64,000 bases of DNA, taken from contig JAKQDQ010000178.1 in assembly GCA_029573725.1 (NCBI GenBank), positions 655,929-719,928 on the forward strand, given 5' to 3'. The DNA is from Verrucomicrobiota bacterium (GTDB lineage: Bacteria > Verrucomicrobiota > Verrucomicrobiia > Limisphaerales > JADLHS01). The translations under genes were made by a program, and so were the position numbers. Below the pieces are notes generated by a model, which saw only the letters and a program-made list of their open reading frames with translations, was not told where the DNA came from and searched no databases. Below, in pieces: positions 45,077 to 63,925 of this stretch (its first letter is position 1; the number at the start of each line of letters is the position of its first letter).

Positions 45077-45838
45077 ATGAAAGCTTTCGCTGACCTGGGT
45101 TTTCCGGGGCGCCTGATTGCCGTCGAGGGCCTGGACGGCTCCGGCAAATCCACCCAGATTTACCTGCTCCGGCGCTGGCTGGAAGCGGAGGGAGTGAAGG
45201 TTTATTTCAGCGAGTGGAATTCATCGGAACTGGTCAAATCGGCCACGAGCAAGGGCAAGAAGCGCGAACTGCTTTCCCCCACCACGTTCAGTCTGATCCA
45301 CGCGACGGATTTCGCGGACCGTTACGAGCGGCACCTGCTGCCGCTGTTGCGCGCGGGGTATGTGGTCTTGTGCGATCGCTACGTCTTCACCGCCTTCGCG
45401 CGCGATGTCGTCCGCGGCTGTTCCCCGAACTGGGTTCGGGGAATTTATAGCTTTGCCGCCGCGCCGGACCTCACCTTTTTCTTCAAGGCGGATCTGGAAG
45501 TGTCCCTGGGCCGCATTCTGGAGGGGCGCCCCAAGTTGAAATTTTTCGAAGCCGGCATGGACCTGCGTTTGTCGCCGGATCCCTACGAAAGCTTTCGGAT
45601 CTTCCAAGGCCGCATTCTGGACCAGTACCTGGCGATGAGTGCGGAGTTCAGCTTCGTAACCATTGACGCGAACCAGCGCGTGGAAACGCAGCAAACCACC
45701 GTCCGCCGCCTGGTCAATCAGCGCATTGATTTTGACCAGTTCCGCCGCAACAGTCCGCTGCCCCTGCCTCCGCCGGTCGAACGTTTGGCGGGCCGCAACC
45801 GGCGCCCCCAAGAAATCGAGGAGGACTCCGCCGCATGA
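45077..45838 (+). CDS. thymidylate-kinase-like P-loop kinase, first of pair
   Basis: 253 residues. The N-terminus LIAVEGLDGSGKSTQIYLLR is the TMK-type Walker A (Lys24), and LCDRYVFTAFARD holds the DRY motif of TMK. The phrase that normally follows the P-loop in dTMP kinase (R-E-P-G-G-T) is absent; VYFSEWNSSELVKSATSKGK stands there. The LID region also differs (EGRPKLKFFEAGMDLRLSPD). It is longer than the usual 205-215 residues. It probably phosphorylates a nucleotide or nucleotide-like substrate, but canonical dTMP kinase activity is doubtful. The stop overlaps the ATG of a paralogue (ATGA). Confidence 0.75.
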   Translation: MKAFADLGFPGRLIAVEGLDGSGKSTQIYLLRRWLEAEGVKVYFSEWNSSELVKSATSKGKKRELLSPTTFSLIHATDFADRYERHLLPLLRAGYVVLCDRYVFTAFARDVVRGCSPNWVRGIYSFAAAPDLTFFFKADLEVSLGRILEGRPKLKFFEAGMDLRLSPDPYESFRIFQGRILDQYLAMSAEFSFVTIDANQRVETQQTTVRRLVNQRIDFDQFRRNSPLPLPPPVERLAGRNRRPQEIEEDSAA

Positions 45839-46563
45839 ACAAGGCGCATCCGAAACTCGAGGTGCCCTCGCGCAGTGATCGCAGTTTTTATGGCGAGGGC
45901 ATTCCACGTATCAGACCGGAGGAACTCGCCGGCAAACTGATCGTGGTGGAGGGAGCGGATGGTTCGGGACGTTCAACGCAGATCGAACTGCTGGTGCAAT
46001 GGCTGGAGATTTCCGGCCACGCCACCGTGCAGGTGGGGCTGAAACGTTCGACCCTCGTGAGTGAGGAACTGGCGCGCGCCCAGAACGGAAACATCCTCAG
46101 CCATACCACGCTGAGCCTTTTTTACGCGACCGACTTCGCCGATCAGTTGGAGAACGTGATCCTGCCGTCGCTCAAGGCCGGCTTCATCGTGCTGGCCGAC
46201 CGTTACATTTACACCTTGATGGCGCGCGACATGGTGCGCGGGATGGATGCGGCCTGGTTGAGAAACCTGTATGGCATCGCGCTGAAGCCGGATGCCGTTT
46301 TCTATCTGGCCATTGAGCCGGCGGAACTGCTCCAAAGGGTGTTGGCCAAGGCGGCCACGCTGGATTACTGGGAAAGCGGGATGGACCTCGGGTTGTCGCG
46401 CGACTTGTACGACAGTTTCATTGAGTACCAGACCCTGATGCGCCTCGCCTTCCGCAAGCTGCAAAAATCTTATGGTTTCACCGTGGTGGACGGGCATCGC
46501 GCGGTGGACGAAGTCAACCGGGAGCTGAAGCAGAACATCGAAACGGTTTTGACGGGCCAATGA
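45835..46563 (+). CDS. thymidylate-kinase-like protein with altered P-loop, second of pair
   Basis: 242 residues, starting inside the stop of the previous gene behind a GAGGAGGA Shine-Dalgarno. It is homologous to its neighbour along its length (ATDFADQLENVILPSLKAGF, LADRYIYTLMARDMVRGMDA, DYWESGMDLGLSRDLYDSF). Its Walker A reads GADGSGRST: Arg46 replaces the Lys that contacts the ATP phosphates. A 30-residue N-terminal extension precedes the P-loop. The R-E-P-G-G-T block is missing here too. It may be a regulatory or weakly active subunit that pairs with the first protein, as TMKs are dimers (inference). Confidence 0.75.
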   Translation: MNKAHPKLEVPSRSDRSFYGEGIPRIRPEELAGKLIVVEGADGSGRSTQIELLVQWLEISGHATVQVGLKRSTLVSEELARAQNGNILSHTTLSLFYATDFADQLENVILPSLKAGFIVLADRYIYTLMARDMVRGMDAAWLRNLYGIALKPDAVFYLAIEPAELLQRVLAKAATLDYWESGMDLGLSRDLYDSFIEYQTLMRLAFRKLQKSYGFTVVDGHRAVDEVNRELKQNIETVLTGQ

Positions 46564-52349: not shown

Positions 52350-52448
52350 CCGCACCGGTGGCGCCGCCGCCTTTTCTGATTGCTGCGTTTCGCAAGTTTC
52401 TGCATAAAACGGCTGCCAATCGGCCGGGCGTCACGCCCCGGCCCTGAG

Positions 52449-53525
52449 ATGAAAATACTGGTCATATCACTCGCCGGCATTGGAGACACCCTGCTGGCCA
52501 CGCCCTTGATCGCCGAGCTGCGGGCCAACTTTCCCGGGGCCCGCATTGACGCCCTGACGTTGTGGCCGGGGGCGAAGGATCTGCTCGAGACGAATCCCCA
52601 TCTCGACACCGTCTATCAAAAAAATCTGCTCCACAGCCCGAAAGCGGGGGCCTGGCGTTTTCTGCGCGAACTGCGGAGCCGGCGTTATGACGTTTCGATC
52701 AACACCCATCCGCAGAGCCGGATTCATTACCGCTTCATCGCGCGGCTCATTGGTGCGCGCGAACGTCTGAGCCATGAATACGACTGCTCCGGATGTCTGG
52801 ATCATTTGCTGGTAAACCAGACCCTGCCCCAGGATTACGCCCGGCACACCGTCGAGCAGAATCTTGATTTTTTGCGCTGCCTCGGCGGCAAACCCAGACT
52901 GGCGCCGCACCGCACCGAAGTGCATCCAACCGCGGACGATGAGCGCTGGGCCGGGGACTTTTTTTCCGCGCACGAGCTCGCCCGTTTTTTTTGCCTCGGG
53001 GTGCACATCGGGAGCGGCGGCACCAAGAATCTGGCCCTGAAGCGCTGGCCGCTGGAGCGCTACCGGCAATTGTTCCAAAGGCTGAACCGGGAGCAGCCCG
53101 GGATTAAAATCCTCCTGTTTGGCGGCGGCGCGGAATTGCGCCAGCATCAGCATCTCTGCGCCGCAACGGAGCCGCGCCGGGTGGTTTCGGTGGAGACCGG
53201 CAATCTGCGTCAGGCCGCGGCCCTGCTGCGGCGCTGCCAGATGTTCCTCAGTGTGGACACGGCGCTGATGCATCTGGCGGCGGCGATGCACACCCCCAAC
53301 CAGATCGTGATCGAAGCGCCCACGCTGAACCCCACCAATCTGCCCTACGGCAATCCGTTCACCGTGGTGCCCAATCCCGTTTCGCATGGACGCTCACTGG
53401 AGTACTATCGCTACGACGGCCATGGCATCCGTGGCACCACCGCCGAATTGCTGGCCTGCATGCAATCCGTGACGGTGGACGCGGTCTGGGCGGCGGTGAC
53501 TGCGGCGCTCGCGCGGCGCGGTTAG
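52449..53525 (+). CDS. glycosyltransferase family 9, heptosyltransferase-like
   Basis: 358 residues from ATG 52449 (MKILVISLAGIGDTLLATPL), the classic GT9 opening. The C-terminal domain has FCLGVHIGSGGTKNLALKRW, PLERYRQLFQRL and FLSVDTALMHLAAAMHTPN, which bind the nucleotide sugar. It is similar in type to the GT9 at 39107-40123 but not a close copy. Likely substrate: ADP-heptose or a related sugar for a surface glycan. It starts a plus-strand run with the C-methyltransferase and GDP-mannose dehydratase genes. Confidence 0.88.
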   Translation: MKILVISLAGIGDTLLATPLIAELRANFPGARIDALTLWPGAKDLLETNPHLDTVYQKNLLHSPKAGAWRFLRELRSRRYDVSINTHPQSRIHYRFIARLIGARERLSHEYDCSGCLDHLLVNQTLPQDYARHTVEQNLDFLRCLGGKPRLAPHRTEVHPTADDERWAGDFFSAHELARFFCLGVHIGSGGTKNLALKRWPLERYRQLFQRLNREQPGIKILLFGGGAELRQHQHLCAATEPRRVVSVETGNLRQAAALLRRCQMFLSVDTALMHLAAAMHTPNQIVIEAPTLNPTNLPYGNPFTVVPNPVSHGRSLEYYRYDGHGIRGTTAELLACMQSVTVDAVWAAVTAALARRG

Positions 53526-53583: not shown

Positions 53584-54870
53584 ATGTCGACGCCGCTGTT
53601 TTCGCCGATTCTCGTGACGCGCAATACGTGCCGCATTTGTGGCAGCCGGGCGTTGACCCCCGTGCTGTCCCTGGGCGACCAGTACATTGCCGGGGCCTTT
53701 GCCTCTCCGGATGGCCGGCCGCCGGTGGGCCGCCGGATTCCGCTGGACCTGGTGCGGTGTGATCCGGCCCGCGACCAGGAAGCGTGCGGCCTGGTGCAGC
53801 TGCGGCACAGCGTGCCTCCGCGCATTTTGTATCGCGCCTATTTTTACCGCTCCGGCATCAATCAGAGCATGCGCGAGCATCTTGCGGGCATCGCCGGTTT
53901 TGGCGAGAGCCTGATCAAGCTCGCCGCGGGAGACCTGGTGCTGGACATCGGTTGCAATGACGGAACGCTGCTCAAGTCCTACCGCACCCGGGGGCTCAAA
54001 CGCCTCGGAATTGATCCCTCGAACATGGTGGAGCACGCCCGGGCGGCGGGATTGCAGGTGGTCAATGATTTCTTCTCCGCCGCGGCGTTGCGTTCGGCGT
54101 ATCCGTACGAAAAGCCGAAAATCATCACCTCGATCGCCATGTTTTATGACCTGGAGAATCCCCACGCCTTCGTCAGCGACATCCAGGCCTGCCTGCACGA
54201 GGAAGGCGTCTGGATATTGGAGCTGAGCTATCTGCCGCTGATGCTCAAGATGAACAGCTTCGACACGATCTGTCACGAACACCTGGAGTACTACTCGCTC
54301 GCCCCGTTTGAGCGTCTGCTCGCCGAACATGATTTGGAGGTGGTGGATATTACGTTGAATGATTGCAACGGAGGCAGTTTCCGGATTGCGGTCGGTCATA
54401 AGGGCCGGGTGCAGCCGGGCGCCGCCGCCGGCGAACGGGTGCAACAGTTGCGGCTGGAGGAATTTGAGCTGGCGCTCGACACGGATGCGCCCTACGCCGC
54501 ATTTCGCCGGCACATCGAAAAAATCCGCAAGGACCTGCGCGCGTTTTTGTTGAAGGCCAGGCGGCAGAAGAAGCTCGTGCATGGATACGGGGCGTCCACC
54601 AAGGGCAATACGACCCTGCAATACATCGGCATCACGCCGGATTTGGTGCCCGCTGTGGCCGATCGCAATCCGATCAAGCACGGCAGTTTCACGATCGGCA
54701 CCAACATTCCGATTATTTCCGAGGAGGCCTCCCGCCAGCAAAAGCCGGATTATTATCTCGTCCTGCCGTGGCATTTCCTGGAGGAATTCAAGCAGCGCGA
54801 GGCGGCCTTTCTGCAGCGCGGCGGCAAATTTCTGCTGCCCATGCCCACCGTCCACCTGGTGGGCCAGTAG
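53584..54870 (+). CDS. sugar-nucleotide C-methyltransferase (Methyltransf_13/14 type)
   Basis: 428 residues. The ATG at 53584 is preferred over a TTG two codons earlier. The N-terminal zinc site is CRICGSRALTPVLSLG with a later Cys pair (VRCDPARDQEACGLVQL). The SAM domain has DLVLDIGCNDGTLLKSYRTR and ILELSYLPLMLKMNSFDTIC, then HEHLEYYSL. The C-terminal Rossmann-like domain has HGYGASTKGNTTLQYIGI. This three-part layout is that of the TylC3/EvaC-type C-methyltransferases, which make branched-chain deoxysugars on 4-keto nucleotide sugars. Next to a GDP-mannose dehydratase it could act on a GDP-4-keto-6-deoxy sugar (inference). 6 nt separate it from that gene. Confidence 0.88.
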   Translation: MSTPLFSPILVTRNTCRICGSRALTPVLSLGDQYIAGAFASPDGRPPVGRRIPLDLVRCDPARDQEACGLVQLRHSVPPRILYRAYFYRSGINQSMREHLAGIAGFGESLIKLAAGDLVLDIGCNDGTLLKSYRTRGLKRLGIDPSNMVEHARAAGLQVVNDFFSAAALRSAYPYEKPKIITSIAMFYDLENPHAFVSDIQACLHEEGVWILELSYLPLMLKMNSFDTICHEHLEYYSLAPFERLLAEHDLEVVDITLNDCNGGSFRIAVGHKGRVQPGAAAGERVQQLRLEEFELALDTDAPYAAFRRHIEKIRKDLRAFLLKARRQKKLVHGYGASTKGNTTLQYIGITPDLVPAVADRNPIKHGSFTIGTNIPIISEEASRQQKPDYYLVLPWHFLEEFKQREAAFLQRGGKFLLPMPTVHLVGQ

Positions 54871-54876
54871 GACGTC

Positions 54877-55881
54877 ATGAAATGCGCGGCAATCACGGGC
54901 ATCCTGGGGCAGGACGGCACCTACCTGGCCCGTTGGCTCTTGCACCAGGGTTACGCGGTGCATGGTCTGTTGCGCCTCCCTTTCGATCGTGAAGAGGCGC
55001 GGGTGCGCCGCCGGTTTCCGGCCGCACAGATCCGCGCCATCCAGTGGCACACGGGTTCGCTGACGGACCCCTTTGCGCTGCTGCGGTTCTTGCAGACGGC
55101 GCAACCAACGGAACTGTATCATCTGGCCGGCGTCAGCGATTCCCGGCAAAGCTTCGTCATTCCCGAGGAAACGCTCGCCAGCATCACGCTGGGCACCTTG
55201 CGGTTGCTGGAAGCCGCCCGCGCGGCCTGTCCGGCCGCCCGCATTTTTCTCGCCTCCTCCGCCGAGGTGTTTGGTGCCCCCGCCGAGACTCCCCAATGCG
55301 AATCCACCTTGCGCCAGCCGGCAACCCCGTACGGCATCGCCAAACTGGCCGCGGATCAACTGGGGCGTTTGCATCGCACCCACTACCAGCAATTTGTGGT
55401 CAGCGGCATTCTCTATAATCACGAATCCCCCCTGCGTCCGGCGAATTATCTCAGCCGTCGTGTCGCCCAGGCGGTGGCCGCCATCAAGGCCGGCCGCGCG
55501 CGGGAACTGGAACTGGCCGACCTGAGCGCGGCGCGGGACTGGTCGGACGCGCGCGATGTGGTGCGCGGGTATCAGCTGGCGTTGCAGGCCCCGGCGCCCG
55601 CGGATTACATTTTTGCCTCCGGACGGCAGCACCAGGTGGCCGAGCTGGTGGACCGCGCGTTCCGGACGGCGGATTTGGACTATCGCGAATTTGTCAGGGT
55701 CACCGATCGCACGTCCAATACGCAGCAGGTGGTCAATGGTCTCCGTGGCAATCCGGCCAGGGCCGAGACGGAATTGGGCTGGCGGCGCAACTGGACCTTC
55801 ATCCGGACCATTGAAGACATGGTGCGGGCGGAGCTGGAAGCGCGTCCGGAACTGGAACGGGCCGATCCGTTATGGCAATAA
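54877..55881 (+). CDS. gmd: GDP-mannose 4,6-dehydratase
   Basis: 334 residues. SDR-family enzyme converting GDP-mannose to GDP-4-keto-6-deoxymannose. Motifs are AAITGILGQDGTYLARWLL with the NADP-binding glycines, ASSAEVFG (Ser in the place of the usual Thr, and the catalytic Glu), TPYGIAKLAADQL with the YxxxK pair, and GILYNHESPLRP, which is specific to GMD. It is slightly shorter than the usual 345-370. No GDP-fucose synthase gene is in the window, so the end product is open. The preceding C-methyltransferase gene suggests a branched sugar. Confidence 0.9.
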   Translation: MKCAAITGILGQDGTYLARWLLHQGYAVHGLLRLPFDREEARVRRRFPAAQIRAIQWHTGSLTDPFALLRFLQTAQPTELYHLAGVSDSRQSFVIPEETLASITLGTLRLLEAARAACPAARIFLASSAEVFGAPAETPQCESTLRQPATPYGIAKLAADQLGRLHRTHYQQFVVSGILYNHESPLRPANYLSRRVAQAVAAIKAGRARELELADLSAARDWSDARDVVRGYQLALQAPAPADYIFASGRQHQVAELVDRAFRTADLDYREFVRVTDRTSNTQQVVNGLRGNPARAETELGWRRNWTFIRTIEDMVRAELEARPELERADPLWQ

Positions 55882-55888
55882 TACGACT

Positions 55889-56773
55889 ATGAGTGCGCTC
55901 TTTCGCCGTCTGGCCTACCAGTTCTCCCTGTTCGGTTATTTCAAGGAGACGTGCCGGAAATTTTACCAGATGCCGGCGAACATCGAGCGGCAGACGCTGC
56001 TGGCGCAGCACCAGTTCCTGCGCGATCTGCTCAAGGAACCGCGCTACGCGGAACCCCGGCGGCTCTGTCGCCATGAGCAGCAGGTGTTTTCGCAGAACGG
56101 CGAGGATGGTGCCGTGGCGGAGATCTTCCGCCGCATCGGGATCCGGGATCGGACCTTCGTGGAGATTGGGGTCAGCGAGGGGCTGGAAAACAACACCACC
56201 TCCCTGCTGGTGCAAGGCTGGAAAGGTTTCTGGTTTGACGGTGATGACGGCGCCATTGCCAGGATCCAACGGCATTTTTGGCAACCCCTGGCGCGGGGCG
56301 ATTTGAAGCTGAAACGCGCCTTTATCAATGCCGAGAACGCCGGAAGCCTGCTGGACGGGGCCGGCGTCCCCCGGGAATTCGACTTGTTGTCCGTGGACAT
56401 TGACCGGAACACCTATTATGTCTGGCAGGCGTTGGCGGGGATCCGCCCCCGGGTGGCGGTGATCGAATACAATTCCTTGTTTCCGCCCGACGTGGATTGG
56501 AAGGTCGAGTACCGCCCCGACCTGGTGTTCAACTGCACCAGCTACATGGGTGCCAGCCTGAAAGCCTACGAACGGCTGGGGGCGGAAAAAGGGTACGCCC
56601 TGGTCGGCTGCGATCTCTCCGGCATGAATGCTTATTTTGTGCGCCAGGATTTGGTGGGCGACAAGTTTGCCGCCCCGTTCACGGCTGAAAACCATTACGA
56701 ACCGCCGCGGCCCTTCCTGATCCATCGCAACGGCCTGCCCCGCTGTTTTTCCGACCTCCCCCCGCCCGGGTGA
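55889..56773 (+). CDS. FkbM-like protein of a glycan cluster
   Basis: 294 residues from ATG 55889, 7 nt after gmd. The core reads VFSQNGEDGAVAEIFRRIGI, TFVEIGVSEGLENNTTSLLV, then QGWKGFWFDGDDGAIARI. This is the layout of FkbM-type SAM-methyltransferase-fold proteins found in polysaccharide loci (acidic FVEIG motif I). Downstream are FDLLSVDIDRNTYYVWQALA and VAVIEYNSLFPPDVDWKVEY. No classic GxGxG is present, so catalysis is uncertain. There is no signal peptide. It ends 2 nt from the convergent GT4 gene. Confidence 0.7.
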   Translation: MSALFRRLAYQFSLFGYFKETCRKFYQMPANIERQTLLAQHQFLRDLLKEPRYAEPRRLCRHEQQVFSQNGEDGAVAEIFRRIGIRDRTFVEIGVSEGLENNTTSLLVQGWKGFWFDGDDGAIARIQRHFWQPLARGDLKLKRAFINAENAGSLLDGAGVPREFDLLSVDIDRNTYYVWQALAGIRPRVAVIEYNSLFPPDVDWKVEYRPDLVFNCTSYMGASLKAYERLGAEKGYALVGCDLSGMNAYFVRQDLVGDKFAAPFTAENHYEPPRPFLIHRNGLPRCFSDLPPPG

Positions 56774-56775
56774 GC

Positions 56776-57948
56776 TCAGCGCGCGCGCAGTTGCCGGTAA
56801 ATTTCCAGGTGGCGGATGAAGATGCGTTCCATGGCAAACGTGTCCGCATTGGCCTGGGTGCGCCGCGTGGCGGCCGCAAGAAATTGAGGGTCATCCAGCA
56901 GCGCGGTCATTTGGTCCGCCAGATCCGTGGCGTTTTTTTCTTCAAAGCTCGGCAGGTCTTCATATTCCTCAAAACAGGGGATGCGTGAAACCAGCACCGG
57001 CTTGCGTGTGGCCAGCACCGTCGAGATCGCGCCGGACGGGAAGTTCCGGTTCAGGTAGGGAAACAGAAAACAAAAGGTCTCGGCAAAAATGTCTTCGAGC
57101 AGCGGGTCGGTGTTGGCCAGGTAACCCGTGAAAATCACCCGGGTTTCGAGTTGCCGCTCGCGCGTGAGCCGCTGCAAATAGCCGATGTAGGATTCGCCCT
57201 GTCCTCCGCCGGGGAAGCTGCTTTTCCCGGTTTCCCCGCTGACAATCACCAGGCGGGGCGCGGGGCGGCCGCGTTGATGCACCAGCAGATCCAGCGCAAA
57301 AATTGCATGCTCATAACCCTTGTTGGGGAAGGCAAAGCCGAACAGGGTGAATATTTTGTCCTCCGGCGCGACGCCGTAGCGTTGTGCCAGCAGCCCATGC
57401 CTTCGCATTTGAATGTTGGCCTGATAGTTGCCCAGATGCACCCGCACCACCTTGCGCTCGAACTGCCGGCGGGAAATGGCGCGCTGCAAGTGCGCCGCGC
57501 CGATTTTGCTCAGCAGCACGATGCGATCCGACAACGCCACCACCAGCCGGAAATGCAGCTTGAGATAGAGCCGGCCCAGGGGGAAGAGCGCGCGGTAGCG
57601 GGCAAAATGCGGCAGCGCGCCGGGCAGGTCGTCAATGTTGTAGGTGGAATGAATTGTGGTTGCCAGCTTGACGCCGAAGCAGCGGCTCCAGAACCAGAGG
57701 TACGGATAAAACAACAGGGCCGTCACACCCACGAGCCGGTCAAACAAAAAAAACTCGTGCTGCACATGGACGATGTCCGGCCGGGTGAACGGTGCGGTTA
57801 ACAAATTGAGCGGCGAAACATTCCGGACCTCAATTTGCACGTTTCGCCCGGGCAGGAAGGCCGGATTGAACAGCTGGCGCGTATATTCGGCGATGCCATC
57901 GCGTTCCCGGCGCGTGGACGAAAGCACCAGCACTCTGAGGGTGCCCAT
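56776..57948 (-). CDS. glycosyltransferase family 4-type (GT-B)
   Basis: 390 residues from ATG 57948 (MGTLRVLVLSSTRRERDGIA), with an alternative start at 57966. GT-B fold: an N-terminal acceptor domain with DGIAEYTRQL and IVHVQHEFFLFDRLVG, and a C-terminal donor domain with DKIFTLFGFAFPNKGYEHAI and FAETFCFLFPYLNRNFPSGA, then ISTVLATRKPVLVSRIPCFE. This is the E-x7-E region of the GT1/GT4 superfamily, here partly altered. It acts in the cytoplasm on a lipid-linked glycan. It is the only minus-strand gene in this part and is divergent from the next GT2. Confidence 0.85.
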   Translation of the reverse strand: MGTLRVLVLSSTRRERDGIAEYTRQLFNPAFLPGRNVQIEVRNVSPLNLLTAPFTRPDIVHVQHEFFLFDRLVGVTALLFYPYLWFWSRCFGVKLATTIHSTYNIDDLPGALPHFARYRALFPLGRLYLKLHFRLVVALSDRIVLLSKIGAAHLQRAISRRQFERKVVRVHLGNYQANIQMRRHGLLAQRYGVAPEDKIFTLFGFAFPNKGYEHAIFALDLLVHQRGRPAPRLVIVSGETGKSSFPGGGQGESYIGYLQRLTRERQLETRVIFTGYLANTDPLLEDIFAETFCFLFPYLNRNFPSGAISTVLATRKPVLVSRIPCFEEYEDLPSFEEKNATDLADQMTALLDDPQFLAAATRRTQANADTFAMERIFIRHLEIYRQLRAR

Positions 57949-58048
57949 TGCGTCATTGCCGTTCATCCGCCCGCCGTCGCATGTCTTCAGGAAAACGTCT
58001 GCCGGCTTCCGATACAAGAAAGAACTGACAACTTCCAGCACATTGCGC

Positions 58049-59110
58049 ATGTTTTCGGCCGTGCGGGTCGCCGAAGATTCCACCGTGCTGGTCAGCGTGA
58101 TCATTGTCCTCTACAACGATGGAGCGTGGCTGCCCCGCTGTCTGGAGTCGCTGCGGCAACAAACCCTGGCGTCCCGGTGTGAGGTCATCGTGGCGGACAA
58201 CGCGTCCACGGATGATTCGGCGCAAATCGCGCAGCAGTTGCTGGCCGGCTGGCCCGGCGGACGCTTCCTGTCCACTGGCGGCAACGTGGGCTTCGGCCCC
58301 GGCAACAATCGGGCGGCCGCCGTCGCGCGCGGCCGCTATCTCTACTTCATCAACTGCGACACCTGGTTTGAGCCGGACTGTCTGGAGCAGCTGTACACGG
58401 CCGCCGAGCGCAGGGCGGCCGCGGCGGCGGGCGCCACGATCCTGGAATACGCCGATGACACCCTGACCGCGCGCGGCAGCGACGGGATGGACCTTTGCGG
58501 CAATCCGGTGGCGCCGCGGCGCGACGGCGTTCCGGACCGGCTGTTTTGCATCGCGGGTTTTTACTTCATCCGGCGGGAGGTTTTTGCGCGGATCGGACAG
58601 TTTGATGAGCGTTATTTCATGTACGGGGAGGAACTGGACCTTTCCTGGCGGCTGTGGGCATGTGGCGAGCAGGTGGTGTATGCCGGCCGGGCCCGCGTGC
58701 ATCACCGCGGCGCGGTGGGCGTGAATCCCGATGGTGGCGTCAAACCGCGCGTCCATCGCACCAGTGAACTCAAACGCTATTACGCCAATCGCAACCAGTT
58801 GTTGACGATTGCCAAGAACGCCCAGCACCTGTTGCTGGGCCTGTTGATTCCCGCCGTCTTGTTGACTTGTGCCGAAGGGGTGTTGACGCTGGCCATGACC
58901 CGCCGGTGGCAGACATTTCGGCGGATCAGCCTGGCACCGCTGGCGGATTTTTTCCGTCTGCTGCCACAAACGCTGGCCGCCCGCCGCCGCCTGGCCGCAG
59001 TCCGCCGGCATGGTGATTTCTGGATGTTGCGCTTTTTGCGCTGCCGCTTCGGCCGGATGCACGAAGTGCAGCAGATTTTGCGCAAGGGATTTCCGCGGTT
59101 CGATGCCTAG
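58049..59110 (+). CDS. glycosyltransferase family 2, rhamnosyl-type
   Basis: 353 residues from ATG 58049. Motifs are VLVSVIIVLYNDGAWLPRCL, VIVADNASTDDSAQIAQQLL, NVGFGPGNNRAAAVARGRYL, the metal-binding YFINCDTWFEPDCLEQL and YFMYGEELDLSWRLWACGEQ. These are typical of GT2 enzymes related to rhamnosyltransferases (WbbL-like). A hydrophobic stretch (about residues 258-280: LLLGLLIPAVLLTCAEG) suggests membrane association. The next gene on this strand is the PEP-CTERM gene. Confidence 0.9.
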   Translation: MFSAVRVAEDSTVLVSVIIVLYNDGAWLPRCLESLRQQTLASRCEVIVADNASTDDSAQIAQQLLAGWPGGRFLSTGGNVGFGPGNNRAAAVARGRYLYFINCDTWFEPDCLEQLYTAAERRAAAAAGATILEYADDTLTARGSDGMDLCGNPVAPRRDGVPDRLFCIAGFYFIRREVFARIGQFDERYFMYGEELDLSWRLWACGEQVVYAGRARVHHRGAVGVNPDGGVKPRVHRTSELKRYYANRNQLLTIAKNAQHLLLGLLIPAVLLTCAEGVLTLAMTRRWQTFRRISLAPLADFFRLLPQTLAARRRLAAVRRHGDFWMLRFLRCRFGRMHEVQQILRKGFPRFDA

Positions 59111-59261: not shown

Positions 59262-59942
59262 ATGAAAAATAACATCAAAATCCTTATTGTATCCACTGTG
59301 GCCCTCGCCTGTACCTTTGACGCCCCGGGCGCGAATGTGAATATCGGATTGGTCAACGGTGATTTTGAATCGCCTTCGATCGGCACTGGCGCCACCTTCA
59401 ATTCCACTACCGCTCCCACTGGGTTCGGATGGACGATAGCCTCAGGCGAGATAGATTTGTTGGGCGCATCCTACTGGCAGCCAGCCAGTGGTACTCAATC
59501 CCTGGATTTAAGTGGCTATTTTTTGCCTGGGTCCATCTACCAAGATTTCGTTTTCCCGAGTGCCGGAACCTGGGTCATCAAATTCGCCCTGTCGGCAAAT
59601 CCAGACTTTACCTGGCAGGGCGATGGGCAGGGTGCTGGCGTCAAGAACCTGCGCGTGGATTTCGGCATCCCCGGGCAGATGTCCTCCTTGGGAACTTTTG
59701 GAGTGGATGCGGACTCACGTTCAATCTGGGACATGAACTGGGTGATCATCACGACGCCGGAGTTGCTCATCCCGGACGCCACCACCTACCGGCTCCAATT
59801 TACCTCGTTGGTGCCGGGAGCGGCCGGTCCGGCACTGGACCGCGTTGAACTGCAAATCGTGCCCGAGCCCTCGGTTGCTGGCCTGCTGCTTGTCCTGGCT
59901 GTTGGCGGGGCGTTCCATCAACGCCGCCTGAAGCGCGCTTGA
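59262..59942 (+). CDS. PEP-CTERM surface protein with choice-of-anchor C domain
   Basis: 226 residues. Signal peptide MKNNIKILIVSTVALACTFD, then APGAN. The body reads NVNIGLVNGDFESPS, GFGWTIASGEIDLLGASYWQ, then PASGTQSLDLSGYFLPGSIY, the pattern of the choice-of-anchor C domain found on diverse surface proteins. The C-terminus is a full PEP-CTERM signal: VPEPS, a hydrophobic helix (VAGLLLVLAVGGAF), then HQRRLKRA. Such proteins are processed by an exosortase (EpsH), which is not in this window. Its position beside glycan genes fits the known link between PEP-CTERM proteins and exopolysaccharide. Confidence 0.9.
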   Translation: MKNNIKILIVSTVALACTFDAPGANVNIGLVNGDFESPSIGTGATFNSTTAPTGFGWTIASGEIDLLGASYWQPASGTQSLDLSGYFLPGSIYQDFVFPSAGTWVIKFALSANPDFTWQGDGQGAGVKNLRVDFGIPGQMSSLGTFGVDADSRSIWDMNWVIITTPELLIPDATTYRLQFTSLVPGAAGPALDRVELQIVPEPSVAGLLLVLAVGGAFHQRRLKRA

Positions 59943-60019: not shown

Positions 60020-60865
60020 CTAGGATTTCCGCCAGAAGCGTCCCGTGTGATCGATTTCAACCAGCGGGGCGGTGATTTTTTCGCGGGTGCGAAAGTCATC
60101 CACCGCTTTTTGGCAGCCCGCCAGGGCGTAGTCGTCAATGATGCAAAACCCGCCGGCGGATAATTTCGGGTAGAGATGAACCAGGGCATCCATGGTGGAT
60201 TCGTACATGTCGCCGTCCAGGCGCATGAGCGCCAGTTGTTGAATCGGGGCCACGGGCAGGGTGTCCTTGAACCATCCCTTGAGAAAAACCACCCGCTCGT
60301 CCAGCAATCCATACTTGCGAAAGTTCTCCTCCACCTGCTCCCGGGACACCGCAAGGAAGTCATGCACGTGATGTTCGTCCCCGGCGTCGGAGGGATACTG
60401 CGCGGCATTGGGCTTGGGCAGGCCGGCGAATGAGTCGGCCACAAAAACCCGGCGCGTGGCCTCCCCGTGGACCGCCAGAATTGCCTTCATGAAAATGCAC
60501 GAGCCGCCGCGCCACACGCCGGTTTCGATCAAATCCCCCGGCACGTTTTCTTGCAACACGGTGGTGACCAGTTGCTGCAGATTGTCCAGGCGTTGCCGGC
60601 TGACCATGGTGTGGGCGTAAGCCGGCCAGGTGCTGCCCGGGTAGCGCCGTTCCTGGTCCATGTCCCGCAGCACGACGAGCCGCAGTCGCACTTTCTTCAG
60701 CAAGGCGGCCACTCCCCGCACGAGCGCCGCCCCCACGCCGGCCCGATACGCCACGGATTCGATGGGTTTGCCCGGGTCCTCCCACAAGGAAAAATGCAGC
60801 GTTTTTTTCAGCAAATCCAAATAAAGCTGACCCGGTGAACGATCCGTGAGCGCGTCTTGCGGCAT
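60020..60865 (-). CDS. TylF/MycF-family O-methyltransferase
   Basis: 281 residues. SAM-dependent, metal-dependent sugar O-methyltransferase type (macrocin O-methyltransferase family). Motifs are GDLIETGVWRGGSCIFMKAI, VFVADSFAGLPKPNA, MRLDGDMYESTMDALVHLYP and KLSAGGFCIIDDYALAGCQK with the acidic metal ligands. There is no membrane segment. It probably methylates a sugar of the glycan made by the neighbouring genes. A promoter (TTGACG, 18 nt, CATACT) ends 6 nt before the ATG at 60865, so that start is well placed. Confidence 0.9.
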   Translation of the reverse strand: MPQDALTDRSPGQLYLDLLKKTLHFSLWEDPGKPIESVAYRAGVGAALVRGVAALLKKVRLRLVVLRDMDQERRYPGSTWPAYAHTMVSRQRLDNLQQLVTTVLQENVPGDLIETGVWRGGSCIFMKAILAVHGEATRRVFVADSFAGLPKPNAAQYPSDAGDEHHVHDFLAVSREQVEENFRKYGLLDERVVFLKGWFKDTLPVAPIQQLALMRLDGDMYESTMDALVHLYPKLSAGGFCIIDDYALAGCQKAVDDFRTREKITAPLVEIDHTGRFWRKS

Positions 60866-61005: not shown

Positions 61006-61024
61006 GACACGAATTTGGGACTGT

Positions 61025-63925
61025 ATGAATTTGCGTCGCGATCCGCGCCCTGCGGGAGAGGGAGGGTTTCCTCCGTTGGTGCGCTTCAATGTGCTCCTGT
61101 TTCTGGTTCTGGCGGTGTTGTTTGGCAGTGGCTGGCGGCCCGGGTACCTCGTGTTTTCCAATGATGCTCCGTTGGGGGCGCTGCACGCGGAGTACCACGA
61201 CATTGCCACTTCGCTCACGGGCACCTGGGCGGATTTGAACTGGCTCGGCCTGAATGGCGGGTTGCAATCCATCAGCATCACGAACCTGCTGCTGCTGCTG
61301 CTCCGGCCCGTGGTGTTTTCCAAGGTGTTTGCGCCGATCGCGTTGTGTCTCGTGGGGAATGGGGCGCGGTTTTTGTGCCGGCGCCTGGGTTTTTCCGAAC
61401 TGGTGGGTGGCGTGGTGGGACTGGCGGCGGCGCTGAACGGTGATTTCATGGCCACGGCGTGCTGGGGGGTGGCCAATCAACCGATCTGCTTTGCCCTGGG
61501 GTATTTTGCGCTGGGCGTGCTGGTCGGACCCCGCCAGCGGCCCTGGGCGCGGGTCATGCTCGCCGGCCTGCTGGTGGGGATGGGGGTGGTCGAAGCGTCT
61601 GATATTGGCGCGATGTTCAGCATTTTCATTGCCGCCTGGGTGGTGGCGCACGCGCTGGCCCAGGAGGGGGCGTGGGGGACAAAACTCCTTCTCGCTGCCG
61701 GCCGTTTGTTGGTGGTTGCGGCGTTTGCCGGATTCATTGCCGCCAACGCGGTGAGCTCCCTGGTGGCCACCCAGATCAAAGGCGTCGTCGGAATGGCGCA
61801 GGACGAGCAGACCCGCGCCCAGCGGTGGAGCGAAGCCACGCAGTGGAGTCTGCCCAAGCGCGAGGCGCTGGACATTGTCGTGCCGGGCTTCTTTGGTTTC
61901 CGCATGGATACACCGCTCAATCTGCCCCCGTGGGCGCAGAAGTGGTTTGCCGATGGCAGCTATTGGGGGTTCGCCGGCCGCGGGCCGGAGTGGGACACCT
62001 TTTTGCAGACGGACCGTCAGGGACCGCTGCCGGGGAATTTTTTCCGTTACGGCATGGGCGCCGGTTACGCGGGCATTCTGGTGCTGTTGGTGGCCGGCTG
62101 GGCCCTGGGCCAAGCGCTGCGGGGGGGGCGGTCGTTTTTCTCCGGCGAGCAACGTAAAATGATTGGGTTCTGGCTGGCTGTGCTGCTCGTCAGCACCGCG
62201 TTCATGTTCGGCCGGTTTGCGCCGTTTTATCAGTTCCTGTACGCACTGCCATACGCTTCGATGTTCCGCAATCCGGCCAAATTTTTGCACGTGTTTTCGT
62301 GGGCGTTGATCGTCTTGTTTGCCTATGGCCTGCACGGATTAACCACCCTGTATTTGGACCGGGCGACCGCCACGACGCGCGGGGCGGTGGAGCAGTTCAG
62401 GACGTGGTGGAAAACGGCGGCCGGATTTGACCGGCGGTGGGTGACCGGATTGTTCCTCACGCTCGGTGGCGTCGGGCTCGTCTGGATCGGGCTGATCAAA
62501 TTCCGCGGGGCGCTGGAGACCTACGCGGCCGGTTATTTTCACTTTCTAAGTTTGTCGCAGGGGGAGAACCCGGATCCGGGCGTCACCGCCGGCGCCGCCG
62601 CGCGCACCATCAGTTTCAGCCTGGGGCAGTACGCTTGGACGCTGGTGTTCGTGCTGGTTTCGGTGGCCTTTCTGGCCCTGCTGACCAGTGGGGCGTTCGC
62701 GGGCAAACGCCGGCGCTTCGCGGGGATGTTGCTGGGATTGCTGGTCGTGGTGGACCTTGGCTGGCAGGCGCAGCCGTGGGTGATCGCGCAAAACTGGACC
62801 GGCCGCTATGTGGAAGCGGCGCAAAATCCGGTGTTCGACCTGCTGCGCGACCGGCCCTACGAGCGCCGCGTCGGCAATGTGGACTCCTTCTATCTGCGCG
62901 CGTTTCAACTGGACCCGCGCCTCGTGGACATGGAAAGCATGTTCCAGTCGGTCTATGGCAGCGAATGGACGCAGCACCTGTTTCCGTACTACAACATCCA
63001 ATCCATCAACGTCGTGCAAATGCCGCGGCGTCCGCTGGATTATGATGTCTTTGAAACCGCGTTTCGCTTCTGGGGTACGACCAGCACGCTGGCCCATGTG
63101 ACGCGCCGCTGGCAGTTGACCAGCACCCGCTACATCGCCGCCGCCGCGCCCCTCGTCGGACTGTTGAATCAAGGTTTCGACGCGGCGCAACAACGCTTCC
63201 AGGTGCGCCTGCCGTTCGACTTCTACCAGAATCGTCCAGGCGGACCGATTCTGATCCGCACCAATGAAAATGGGCGTTACGCCATCCTTGAATTCACCGG
63301 GGCGTTGCCACGCGCCAAAATGTACGCGCACTGGGAAACGCCCGCTTACAACTCGAATCGCGTGGATCAATGGCTGGAGACGATTCCTCCGTCGCTGCAC
63401 GGACCGTTCACCGGGGTGGCGACCAATGATCTGGCGACTCTCGCATTGCTGGCCAGTCCCAACTTTGATCCGGCCCACACGGTTCTGCCCGCGCAAGTCG
63501 TTCCAGGAGGTTCGGACAGCAACGCCCCCGCCGGGACGGTGGACTACGTCAGCTATCATCCCAAGCAAATCGTGCTCAAAACCAAAAGTGCAGCGCCAAA
63601 TGTCCTGCTGTTGAACGACCGTTACGATCCCAACTGGCGGGTGACGATTGATGGTCAGCCCGCCGAGTTGTTGCGCTGCAATTACCTGATGCGCGGGGTG
63701 GCCGTGCCCGCTGGTGAACATGTGGTTGAATTCAACTTCCAACCCGATGTCCAATTTCTCTTTGTCAGCCTGGCGGCAATCGCGTTGGGATTGGTTTTGA
63801 TCGGCTTTCTGGCGGTGCCGGGGCGGACTGAACCGAAACCAGGGGCGGAGCCCGCTCGTCCGAAACCAGCGAAAGCGGACGCCGCCGGAAAAACCGGCAG
63901 GCCCCCCAAACCTGCGCAACAATAA
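61025..63925 (+). CDS. large YfhO-like membrane protein
   Basis: 966 residues from ATG 61025. Twelve or more hydrophobic helices lie in the first 600 residues (VRFNVLLFLVLAVLFGSGW, ITNLLLLLLRPVVFSKVFAP, IGFWLAVLLVSTAFMFGRFA, FSWALIVLFAYGLHGLTTLY). A periplasmic domain follows, with the typical YfhO end: VLLLNDRYDPNWRVTIDGQP, AGEHVVEFNFQPDVQF and a last helix (LAAIALGLVLIGFLAV). A Pro/Lys-rich tail of about 30 residues closes it. YfhO proteins are GT-C-like and are implicated in lipoteichoic-acid or glycolipid glycosylation in Firmicutes. A glycosyltransferase role here is inference, supported by the adjacent glycan genes. Confidence 0.8.
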   Translation: MNLRRDPRPAGEGGFPPLVRFNVLLFLVLAVLFGSGWRPGYLVFSNDAPLGALHAEYHDIATSLTGTWADLNWLGLNGGLQSISITNLLLLLLRPVVFSKVFAPIALCLVGNGARFLCRRLGFSELVGGVVGLAAALNGDFMATACWGVANQPICFALGYFALGVLVGPRQRPWARVMLAGLLVGMGVVEASDIGAMFSIFIAAWVVAHALAQEGAWGTKLLLAAGRLLVVAAFAGFIAANAVSSLVATQIKGVVGMAQDEQTRAQRWSEATQWSLPKREALDIVVPGFFGFRMDTPLNLPPWAQKWFADGSYWGFAGRGPEWDTFLQTDRQGPLPGNFFRYGMGAGYAGILVLLVAGWALGQALRGGRSFFSGEQRKMIGFWLAVLLVSTAFMFGRFAPFYQFLYALPYASMFRNPAKFLHVFSWALIVLFAYGLHGLTTLYLDRATATTRGAVEQFRTWWKTAAGFDRRWVTGLFLTLGGVGLVWIGLIKFRGALETYAAGYFHFLSLSQGENPDPGVTAGAAARTISFSLGQYAWTLVFVLVSVAFLALLTSGAFAGKRRRFAGMLLGLLVVVDLGWQAQPWVIAQNWTGRYVEAAQNPVFDLLRDRPYERRVGNVDSFYLRAFQLDPRLVDMESMFQSVYGSEWTQHLFPYYNIQSINVVQMPRRPLDYDVFETAFRFWGTTSTLAHVTRRWQLTSTRYIAAAAPLVGLLNQGFDAAQQRFQVRLPFDFYQNRPGGPILIRTNENGRYAILEFTGALPRAKMYAHWETPAYNSNRVDQWLETIPPSLHGPFTGVATNDLATLALLASPNFDPAHTVLPAQVVPGGSDSNAPAGTVDYVSYHPKQIVLKTKSAAPNVLLLNDRYDPNWRVTIDGQPAELLRCNYLMRGVAVPAGEHVVEFNFQPDVQFLFVSLAAIALGLVLIGFLAVPGRTEPKPGAEPARPKPAKADAAGKTGRPPKPAQQ

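What the first reader, a model, noticed from the sequence alone, without database searches (positions are those of the whole stretch)
53584..55881. GDP-mannose dehydratase next to a branched-sugar C-methyltransferase, without a fucose synthase
gmd makes GDP-4-keto-6-deoxymannose. The adjacent three-domain C-methyltransferase belongs to a family acting on 4-keto sugars. Together with the TylF O-methyltransferase at 60 kb this predicts a methyl-branched, O-methylated deoxysugar in the surface glycan.
Basis: inference. Interest (0 to 1): 0.5.

Follow-up and report, generated by a model that had tools for sequence, protein, structure and literature searches.

The report
Sugar C-methyltransferase with divergent dehydratase-like partner
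Two neighbouring bacterial genes probably help build a methyl-branched deoxysugar, but the gene read as the standard GDP-mannose dehydratase is a divergent cousin that more likely acts after the methylation step, while a standard dehydratase and a fucose synthase lie elsewhere in the same genome.

Summary
The gene pair is real: a three-domain sugar C-methyltransferase (CMT, 53584-54870) and a GDP-mannose-dehydratase-family SDR (here GMDL, 54877-55881), 6 nt apart. The reading needs correction. GMDL scores 243.8 bits against the Gmd model (cut-off 415); the RR motif and the RPAE Arg/Glu pair are altered across 14 relatives, although the catalytic Ser-Glu-Tyr-Lys and one Arg remain. The genome holds a true Gmd (562 bits) near a GDP-L-fucose synthase on another contig, so 'without a fucose synthase' is only locally true. 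CMT-GMDL is conserved in 14 of 15 genomes of the order with a close CMT. Two of these carry the run Gmd-CMT-GMDL and have no detectable fucose synthase, which suggests that Gmd supplies the 4-keto sugar and GMDL acts later. I therefore favour: Gmd (encoded elsewhere) dehydrates GDP-mannose, CMT adds the methyl group (probably at C3), GMDL reduces the 4-keto group. It is a variant of the virenose-type pathway proposed for Coxiella, with a Gmd-derived subfamily as a possible ketoreductase. No activity was measured.

The parts
53584..54870 (+). CMT: sugar C-methyltransferase, 428 aa, N-terminal zinc-binding domain, SAM domain, C-terminal domain; the only PF08484 protein in the genome
   Evidence: closest solved relatives MtmC 4rv9 (E 7.8e-67) and TcaB9
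54877..55881 (+). GMDL: divergent GDP-mannose-dehydratase-family SDR, 334 aa; catalytic Ser-x-Glu and YxxxK kept, RR loop and RPAE motif lost
55889..56773 (+). FKB: third gene of the run, 294 aa, probably a FkbM-like methyltransferase; follows GMDL in 4 relatives as well (G487, G650, G651, G467)
   Evidence: a plasmid homologue is annotated as FkbM family; no Pfam, NCBIfam or PHROG hit to it; model pLDDT 42.7, not usable
52443..53525 (+). GT9-family (heptosyltransferase-like) glycosyltransferase upstream of CMT
   Evidence: PF01075 E 5.8e-21
56776..58104 (-). GT1/GT4-type glycosyltransferase; a 60% identical homologue lies downstream of GMDL in G610
58088..59110 (+). GT2 glycosyltransferase; a 53% identical homologue lies in the G610 locus
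60020..60865 (-). TylF-family O-methyltransferase
   Evidence: PF05711 E 1.9e-104
61016..63925 (+). YfhO-like membrane protein; homologues near CMT-GMDL in G475, G588 and G647
   Evidence: PF09586 E 1.9e-6, 27.0 bits, just under its cut-off of 28.5

Best explanation
CMT and GMDL form a two-gene module of a GDP-linked, virenose-like pathway. [quoted passage not shown] CMT adds a methyl group next to the ketone, most likely at C3. GMDL, a SDR derived from the Gmd family, then reduces the C4 ketone and gives a GDP-3-C-methyl-6-deoxyhexose. FKB, and perhaps TylF, may O-methylate it, and the nearby glycosyltransferases may build it into a surface glycan. Shown by sequence: families, gene order, conservation, true Gmd and fucose synthase in the genome, residue changes. 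Inferred: the nucleotide, the methylated carbon, the reductase role, the product and its place in a glycan.
For: 1) GMDL follows CMT on the same strand in 14 of 15 genomes with a close CMT among 320 of the order. 2) In G610 and G588 the order is canonical Gmd - CMT - GMDL with about 60-70 and 10 nt between genes; in G491 a canonical Gmd lies 4 kb away. 3) G610 and G588 show no fucose synthase at E <= 1e-60, so their Gmd is not explained by fucose. 4) In G530 the CMT neighbour is a fucose synthase, an enzyme that uses Gmd's product, and there is no GMDL. 5) In five loci the order RfbG-like dehydratase - CMT - second SDR shows the same logic, and that second SDR keeps a Glu although a dehydratase-like gene stands upstream. 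6) GMDL alters residues invariant in 11 canonical Gmds: RR-loop R34/R35, D64 to Ser (14 of 14), R284/E287 of RPAEV. 7) GMDL is the only SDR in the 64 kb window, and the only one within about 5 kb of CMT (as far as contigs reach) in 10 of 14 loci, so no other local reductase is seen there. 8) Gmd-like proteins in an actinobacterial class, the sister of GMDL in one tree (95/84), lie within 7.7 kb of a canonical Gmd in 22 of 24 loci.
Against: GMDL keeps the dehydratase Glu, the Ser-Tyr-Lys triad and the Arg tied to dehydration in 14 of 14, and it is nearer to Gmd than to the known reductase RMD (39% against 25%). Three of 14 CMT-GMDL genomes show no canonical Gmd (G461, G487, G648; 91, 80 and 86% complete), and G648 shows no fucose synthase either. 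Canonical Gmd is common in the order (190 of 320), so 10 of 14 is no clear enrichment. Only 2 of 14 loci have Gmd in the run. The link to the actinobacterial proteins is unresolved in a second tree. CMT itself could reduce, as reported for one relative (PMC3539893).
Confidence: 0.5

Rival explanations
1. One reading: GMDL is a dedicated GDP-mannose 4,6-dehydratase that feeds CMT. The later reductase is encoded elsewhere (for example the fucose synthase) or is CMT itself.
For: Dehydratase Glu, Ser-Tyr-Lys and Arg kept in 14 of 14; nearest solved structures are all Gmds; three genomes show GMDL without a detectable true Gmd, one of them without a fucose synthase too.
Against: A true Gmd in the same genome; true Gmd directly in front of CMT-GMDL in two genomes without a detectable fucose synthase; [quoted passage not shown] 171 bits below the equivalog cut-off.
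Confidence: 0.3
2. GMDL is bifunctional like some known Gmds: it dehydrates GDP-mannose and later reduces the methylated 4-keto product, so CMT and GMDL suffice.
For: GMDL is the only SDR near CMT in 10 of 14 loci; bifunctional Gmds are reported (PMC3584063; PMC3539893); dehydratase residues kept while other conserved residues changed.
Against: It does not explain why G610 and G588 have a Gmd in the same run.
Confidence: 0.12
3. GMDL is an epimerase, or a C4 oxidoreductase without dehydration, so the sugar may not be 6-deoxy.
For: In six more distant loci the Gmd-like SDR next to CMT has lost the dehydratase Glu (L, H, H, I, M, L), and four of these have Arg for the catalytic Lys.
Against: GMDL itself keeps both residues in 14 of 14.
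Confidence: 0.08

Closest known systems
[quoted passage not shown] solved: 1n7g, 1rpn, 1db3)
   Same: Same SDR subfamily, about 39% identity to the genome's own Gmd, catalytic Ser/Thr-Glu-Tyr-Lys, NHESP motif with one Arg
   Different: Below the gmd equivalog cut-off; GXXRR and RR loop lost; RPAE Arg and Glu replaced; Asp of the GDL motif is Ser
[quoted passage not shown] solved: 2pk3)
   Same: The proposed reaction type
   Different: Only 25% identity; GMDL groups with Gmds, not with RMD
Proposed virenose pathway of Coxiella burnetii (Gmd CBU0689, GMER CBU0688, TylCIII-like CBU0691)
   Same: GDP-mannose, Gmd, a TylCIII-type C-methyltransferase, then a reductase or epimerase/reductase (PMC3539893, passages; PMC3204966, passages)
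   Different: Here Gmd and the fucose synthase are on another contig and a Gmd-like paralogue stands next to the methyltransferase
TylCIII/MtmC/TcaB9 sugar 3-C-methyltransferases
   Same: Three domains, SAM motif, conserved Glu-His pair
   Different: CMT has Asp and Cys where MtmC and TcaB9 have His and Tyr; it lies in another branch (100/100) that also holds a Streptomyces plasmid gene beside dTDP-sugar and tailoring genes

Membership tests
[quoted passage not shown]
   243.8 bits; the genome's true Gmd reaches 562.5
[quoted passage not shown]
   GILGQDG at residues 8-14
[quoted passage not shown]
   own protein GLLRL; none of 14 GMDLs has RR; second Arg is F, L, A or S
[quoted passage not shown]
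   aligned with 11 canonical Gmds
[quoted passage not shown]
   NHESPLRP keeps the second Arg
[quoted passage not shown]
   needs purified enzyme
Sugar C-methyltransferase (TylCIII/MtmC/TcaB9 kind) | Methyltransf_13, _23 and _14 domains over cut-off | tested here: met
   56.2, 59.7 and 170.9 bits against 31.3, 27 and 23.5
Sugar C-methyltransferase (TylCIII/MtmC/TcaB9 kind) | Active-site His, Tyr and Glu-His of TcaB9 | tested here: inconclusive
   Glu-His kept; His is Asp and Tyr is Cys, as in most of its branch
RMD reductase | Groups with RMD 2pk3 | tested here: not met
   GMDL lies on the Gmd side of a starred branch
RMD reductase | NAD(P)H-dependent reduction of the 4-keto sugar | not testable with these tools
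   needs purified enzyme
Virenose-type pathway | Gmd, C-methyltransferase and GMER in one genome | tested here: met
   Gmd and fucose synthase on C87, CMT in the window; the three are not in one cluster here

The most novel reading that the evidence does not exclude
GMDL represents an unrecognised branch of the Gmd family that changed from dehydratase to 4-ketoreductase for C-methylated GDP-sugars, with a rebuilt cofactor and nucleotide site. The Verrucomicrobiota that carry it make a 3-C-methyl-6-deoxyhexose of the virenose kind, a sugar that PMC3204966 (2011) reports as known on no surface other than that of Coxiella.
Probability: 0.35. Interest if true: 0.55.

Novelty: new variant of a known kind. 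Interest (0 to 1): 0.4.

Why it matters
Genes of this kind can be labelled GDP-mannose 4,6-dehydratase by default: two plasmid neighbours of CMT relatives carry that label although one is RMD-like and the other has only 94.5 bits on the gmd model. If the role is post-methylation reduction, that label misleads pathway models. The pair also points to branched deoxysugars in a phylum whose surface glycans are little known (recalled, not searched), and could inform the unassigned reductase step discussed for virenose.

Tried and rejected
Fold of FKB: pLDDT 42.7, so no fold search was made. GMDL model with four sequences: pLDDT 64.8, not used for function. A co-occurrence test of CMT-GMDL with canonical Gmd was not informative (10 of 14 against 190 of 320).

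The idea that a kept Glu proves a dehydratase was rejected: second SDRs next to CMT keep it where a dehydratase-like gene stands upstream. The reverse idea, that partners without Glu are all non-dehydratases, was weakened: the CDP-glucose dehydratase RfbG has Lys there, so the Azospirillum thermophilum partner with Lys was not counted as lacking it. Methylation at another carbon because of the Asp/Cys change in CMT was considered and left open: the identity pattern (44% to the pSGRIFU1 gene, 33% to MtmC) resembles that given for CBU0691 with TylCIII/EryBIII and with the S. argillaceus protein (PMC3539893). The GDP-heptose dehydratase reading was rejected: 7us5 matches at E 5e-22 against 7e-57 for Gmd.

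Papers: PMC3539893 and PMC3204966 were seen as passages; PMC3584063 as passages and section 17; King 2009 (PMC4381037) and Webb 2004 (PMC2286695) are not held. I found no paper on this gene pair in the listings of searches; these cover only the held open library.

Full report
What is there. The window is part of a 4.28 Mb draft genome (contig C71). Its order includes G487, which is the genome of locus L007, Verrucomicrobia bacterium ADurb.Bin118 (same contig and coordinates), so it is a Verrucomicrobiota genome. CMT (53584-54870) has the Methyltransf_13, _23 and _14 domains and is the only protein with the last domain in the genome. GMDL (54877-55881) starts 6 nt after the CMT stop; FKB (55889-56773) starts 7 nt after GMDL. 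A GT9 glycosyltransferase precedes CMT; GT4, GT2, TylF and a YfhO-like membrane protein follow.

GMDL is not a standard Gmd. It matches Pfam GDP_Man_Dehyd well but reaches only 243.8 bits on the NCBI gmd model, whose cut-off is 415. The same genome has a protein of 562.5 bits on contig C87, and about 1.4 kb on, past an IS-type transposase gene, a GDP-L-fucose synthase of 486.5 bits (cut-off 500) on the other strand. RmlB and RmlD lie together on C64. A search of the genome with the gmd model gave only the two Gmd-family proteins at E <= 1e-30, so no RMD-like protein was found at that level. Four strong DegT-family aminotransferase matches were found; scanned as matched stretches, none reached an equivalog cut-off, so ColD was neither shown nor excluded.

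The pair is conserved. Among 320 genomes of the order, 150 have some CMT relative at E <= 1e-30 and 15, including this one, have a close one (66% or more). In 14 of these 15 GMDL (60-70% identical) follows on the same strand, within about 16 nt in eight of them and at up to 2.4 kb in G463. FKB follows in G487, G650, G651 and G467 as well. In the fifteenth, G530, a fucose-synthase-like protein (55%) stands directly upstream of CMT and there is no GMDL in the 15 kb read.

Which step does GMDL do? In G610 and G588 a canonical Gmd precedes CMT by about 60-70 nt and GMDL follows by about 10 nt. Neither genome shows a fucose synthase at E <= 1e-60, although 11 of the 15 genomes do. The simplest account is that Gmd makes the 4-keto sugar for CMT there and that GMDL does something else. 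G491 has a canonical Gmd 4 kb away on the other strand. In more distant loci an RfbG-like gene precedes CMT and a second SDR follows (L079, L082, L083, L084, L086). In Azospirillum oryzae the order is mannose-1-phosphate guanylyltransferase, CMT relative, RMD-like SDR.

Residues. Alignment of 14 GMDLs with 11 canonical Gmds shows the catalytic Ser, Glu, Tyr and Lys and one NHESP-region Arg kept. Changed are the two arginines that open the RR loop, the Asp of GDL (Ser in 14 of 14), the QSHV region, the first NHESP Arg (Leu in 14 of 14), and the Arg and Glu of RPAEV. That the RPAE pair binds the GDP ribose and that this Asp binds adenine is recalled, not taken from a call. PMC3584063 lists six Gmd features; GMDL meets four and fails the GXXRR motif and the RR loop.

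Trees. GMDL is one clade (100/100). In one tree its sister (95/84) is a set of actinobacterial proteins; in a second tree with more of these the deep order is unresolved. Of 249 genomes of that actinobacterial class, 24 carry such a protein (E <= 1e-90), and a canonical Gmd lies within 7.7 kb in 22 of 24 fetched stretches, not in G893 and G860. Four of the 24, and L008, have lost the dehydratase Glu.

Against this reading. GMDL keeps all the dehydratase residues tested. G461, G487 and G648 show no canonical Gmd, though they are 80-91% complete and fragmented; G475 has only a Gmd fragment at a contig end. G648 has neither Gmd nor fucose synthase. Canonical Gmd is present in 190 of 320 genomes of the order, so its presence in 10 of 14 carriers proves nothing.

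CMT. It belongs to a branch (100/100) whose members mostly have Asp and Cys where TcaB9, MtmC and an RfbG-linked paralogue have His and Tyr; the Glu-His pair is kept. Of 40 loci compared, four are of the His/Tyr type; among the other 36, four have Ser for the Cys and two have Gly for the Asp. The solved TcaB9 series includes sequences changed at exactly these His and Tyr positions (4e2w and 4e2x). No solved member of this branch was found. Methylation at C3 is therefore likely by family but not shown.

Comparison with the known. The proposed Coxiella virenose pathway uses GDP-mannose, Gmd, a TylCIII-type methyltransferase and GMER or another reductase, and for the dTDP route its authors could not confidently name the reductase (PMC3539893); Gmd activity of CBU0689 was measured (PMC3204966). 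The present locus works like that pathway on paper, but adds a Gmd-derived partner. It is a variant of a known kind, of moderate interest.

Noticed in passing
window 45077-46563 +: Two adjacent P-loop proteins that both look like thymidylate kinases (GLDGSGKST and GADGSGRST) in tandem.
   Followed up: no
G000:C87, L003 2750-3901: An IS-type transposase gene sits between the canonical Gmd and the fucose synthase of this genome.
   Followed up: partly
window 59262-59942 +: Choice-of-anchor/DUF642 protein with a PEP-CTERM-like end next to the glycan genes.
   Followed up: no
L123 7928-8182 - and 5369-6487 -: In G463 a GMDL fragment lies between CMT and an intact GMDL, as if one copy decayed after duplication.
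   Followed up: no
L125 3062-7595 +: In G610 an RfbF-RfbG-CMT2-epimerase-SDR set, with a His/Tyr-type C-methyltransferase, lies directly upstream of Gmd-CMT-GMDL: two C-methyl sugar routes side by side.
   Followed up: partly
L204 3933-10135: An actinobacterial locus (G941) with a distant CMT relative, a canonical Gmd and a Gmd-like protein together.
   Followed up: no
L155 5738-7763 +: G530 has a canonical Gmd followed in tandem by a Gmd-like protein (395 bits on the gmd model), apart from its CMT locus.
   Followed up: no
L008: The record is titled Bifidobacterium breve, but its Gmd-like gene groups with other actinobacterial metagenome genomes; the label may be wrong.
   Followed up: no
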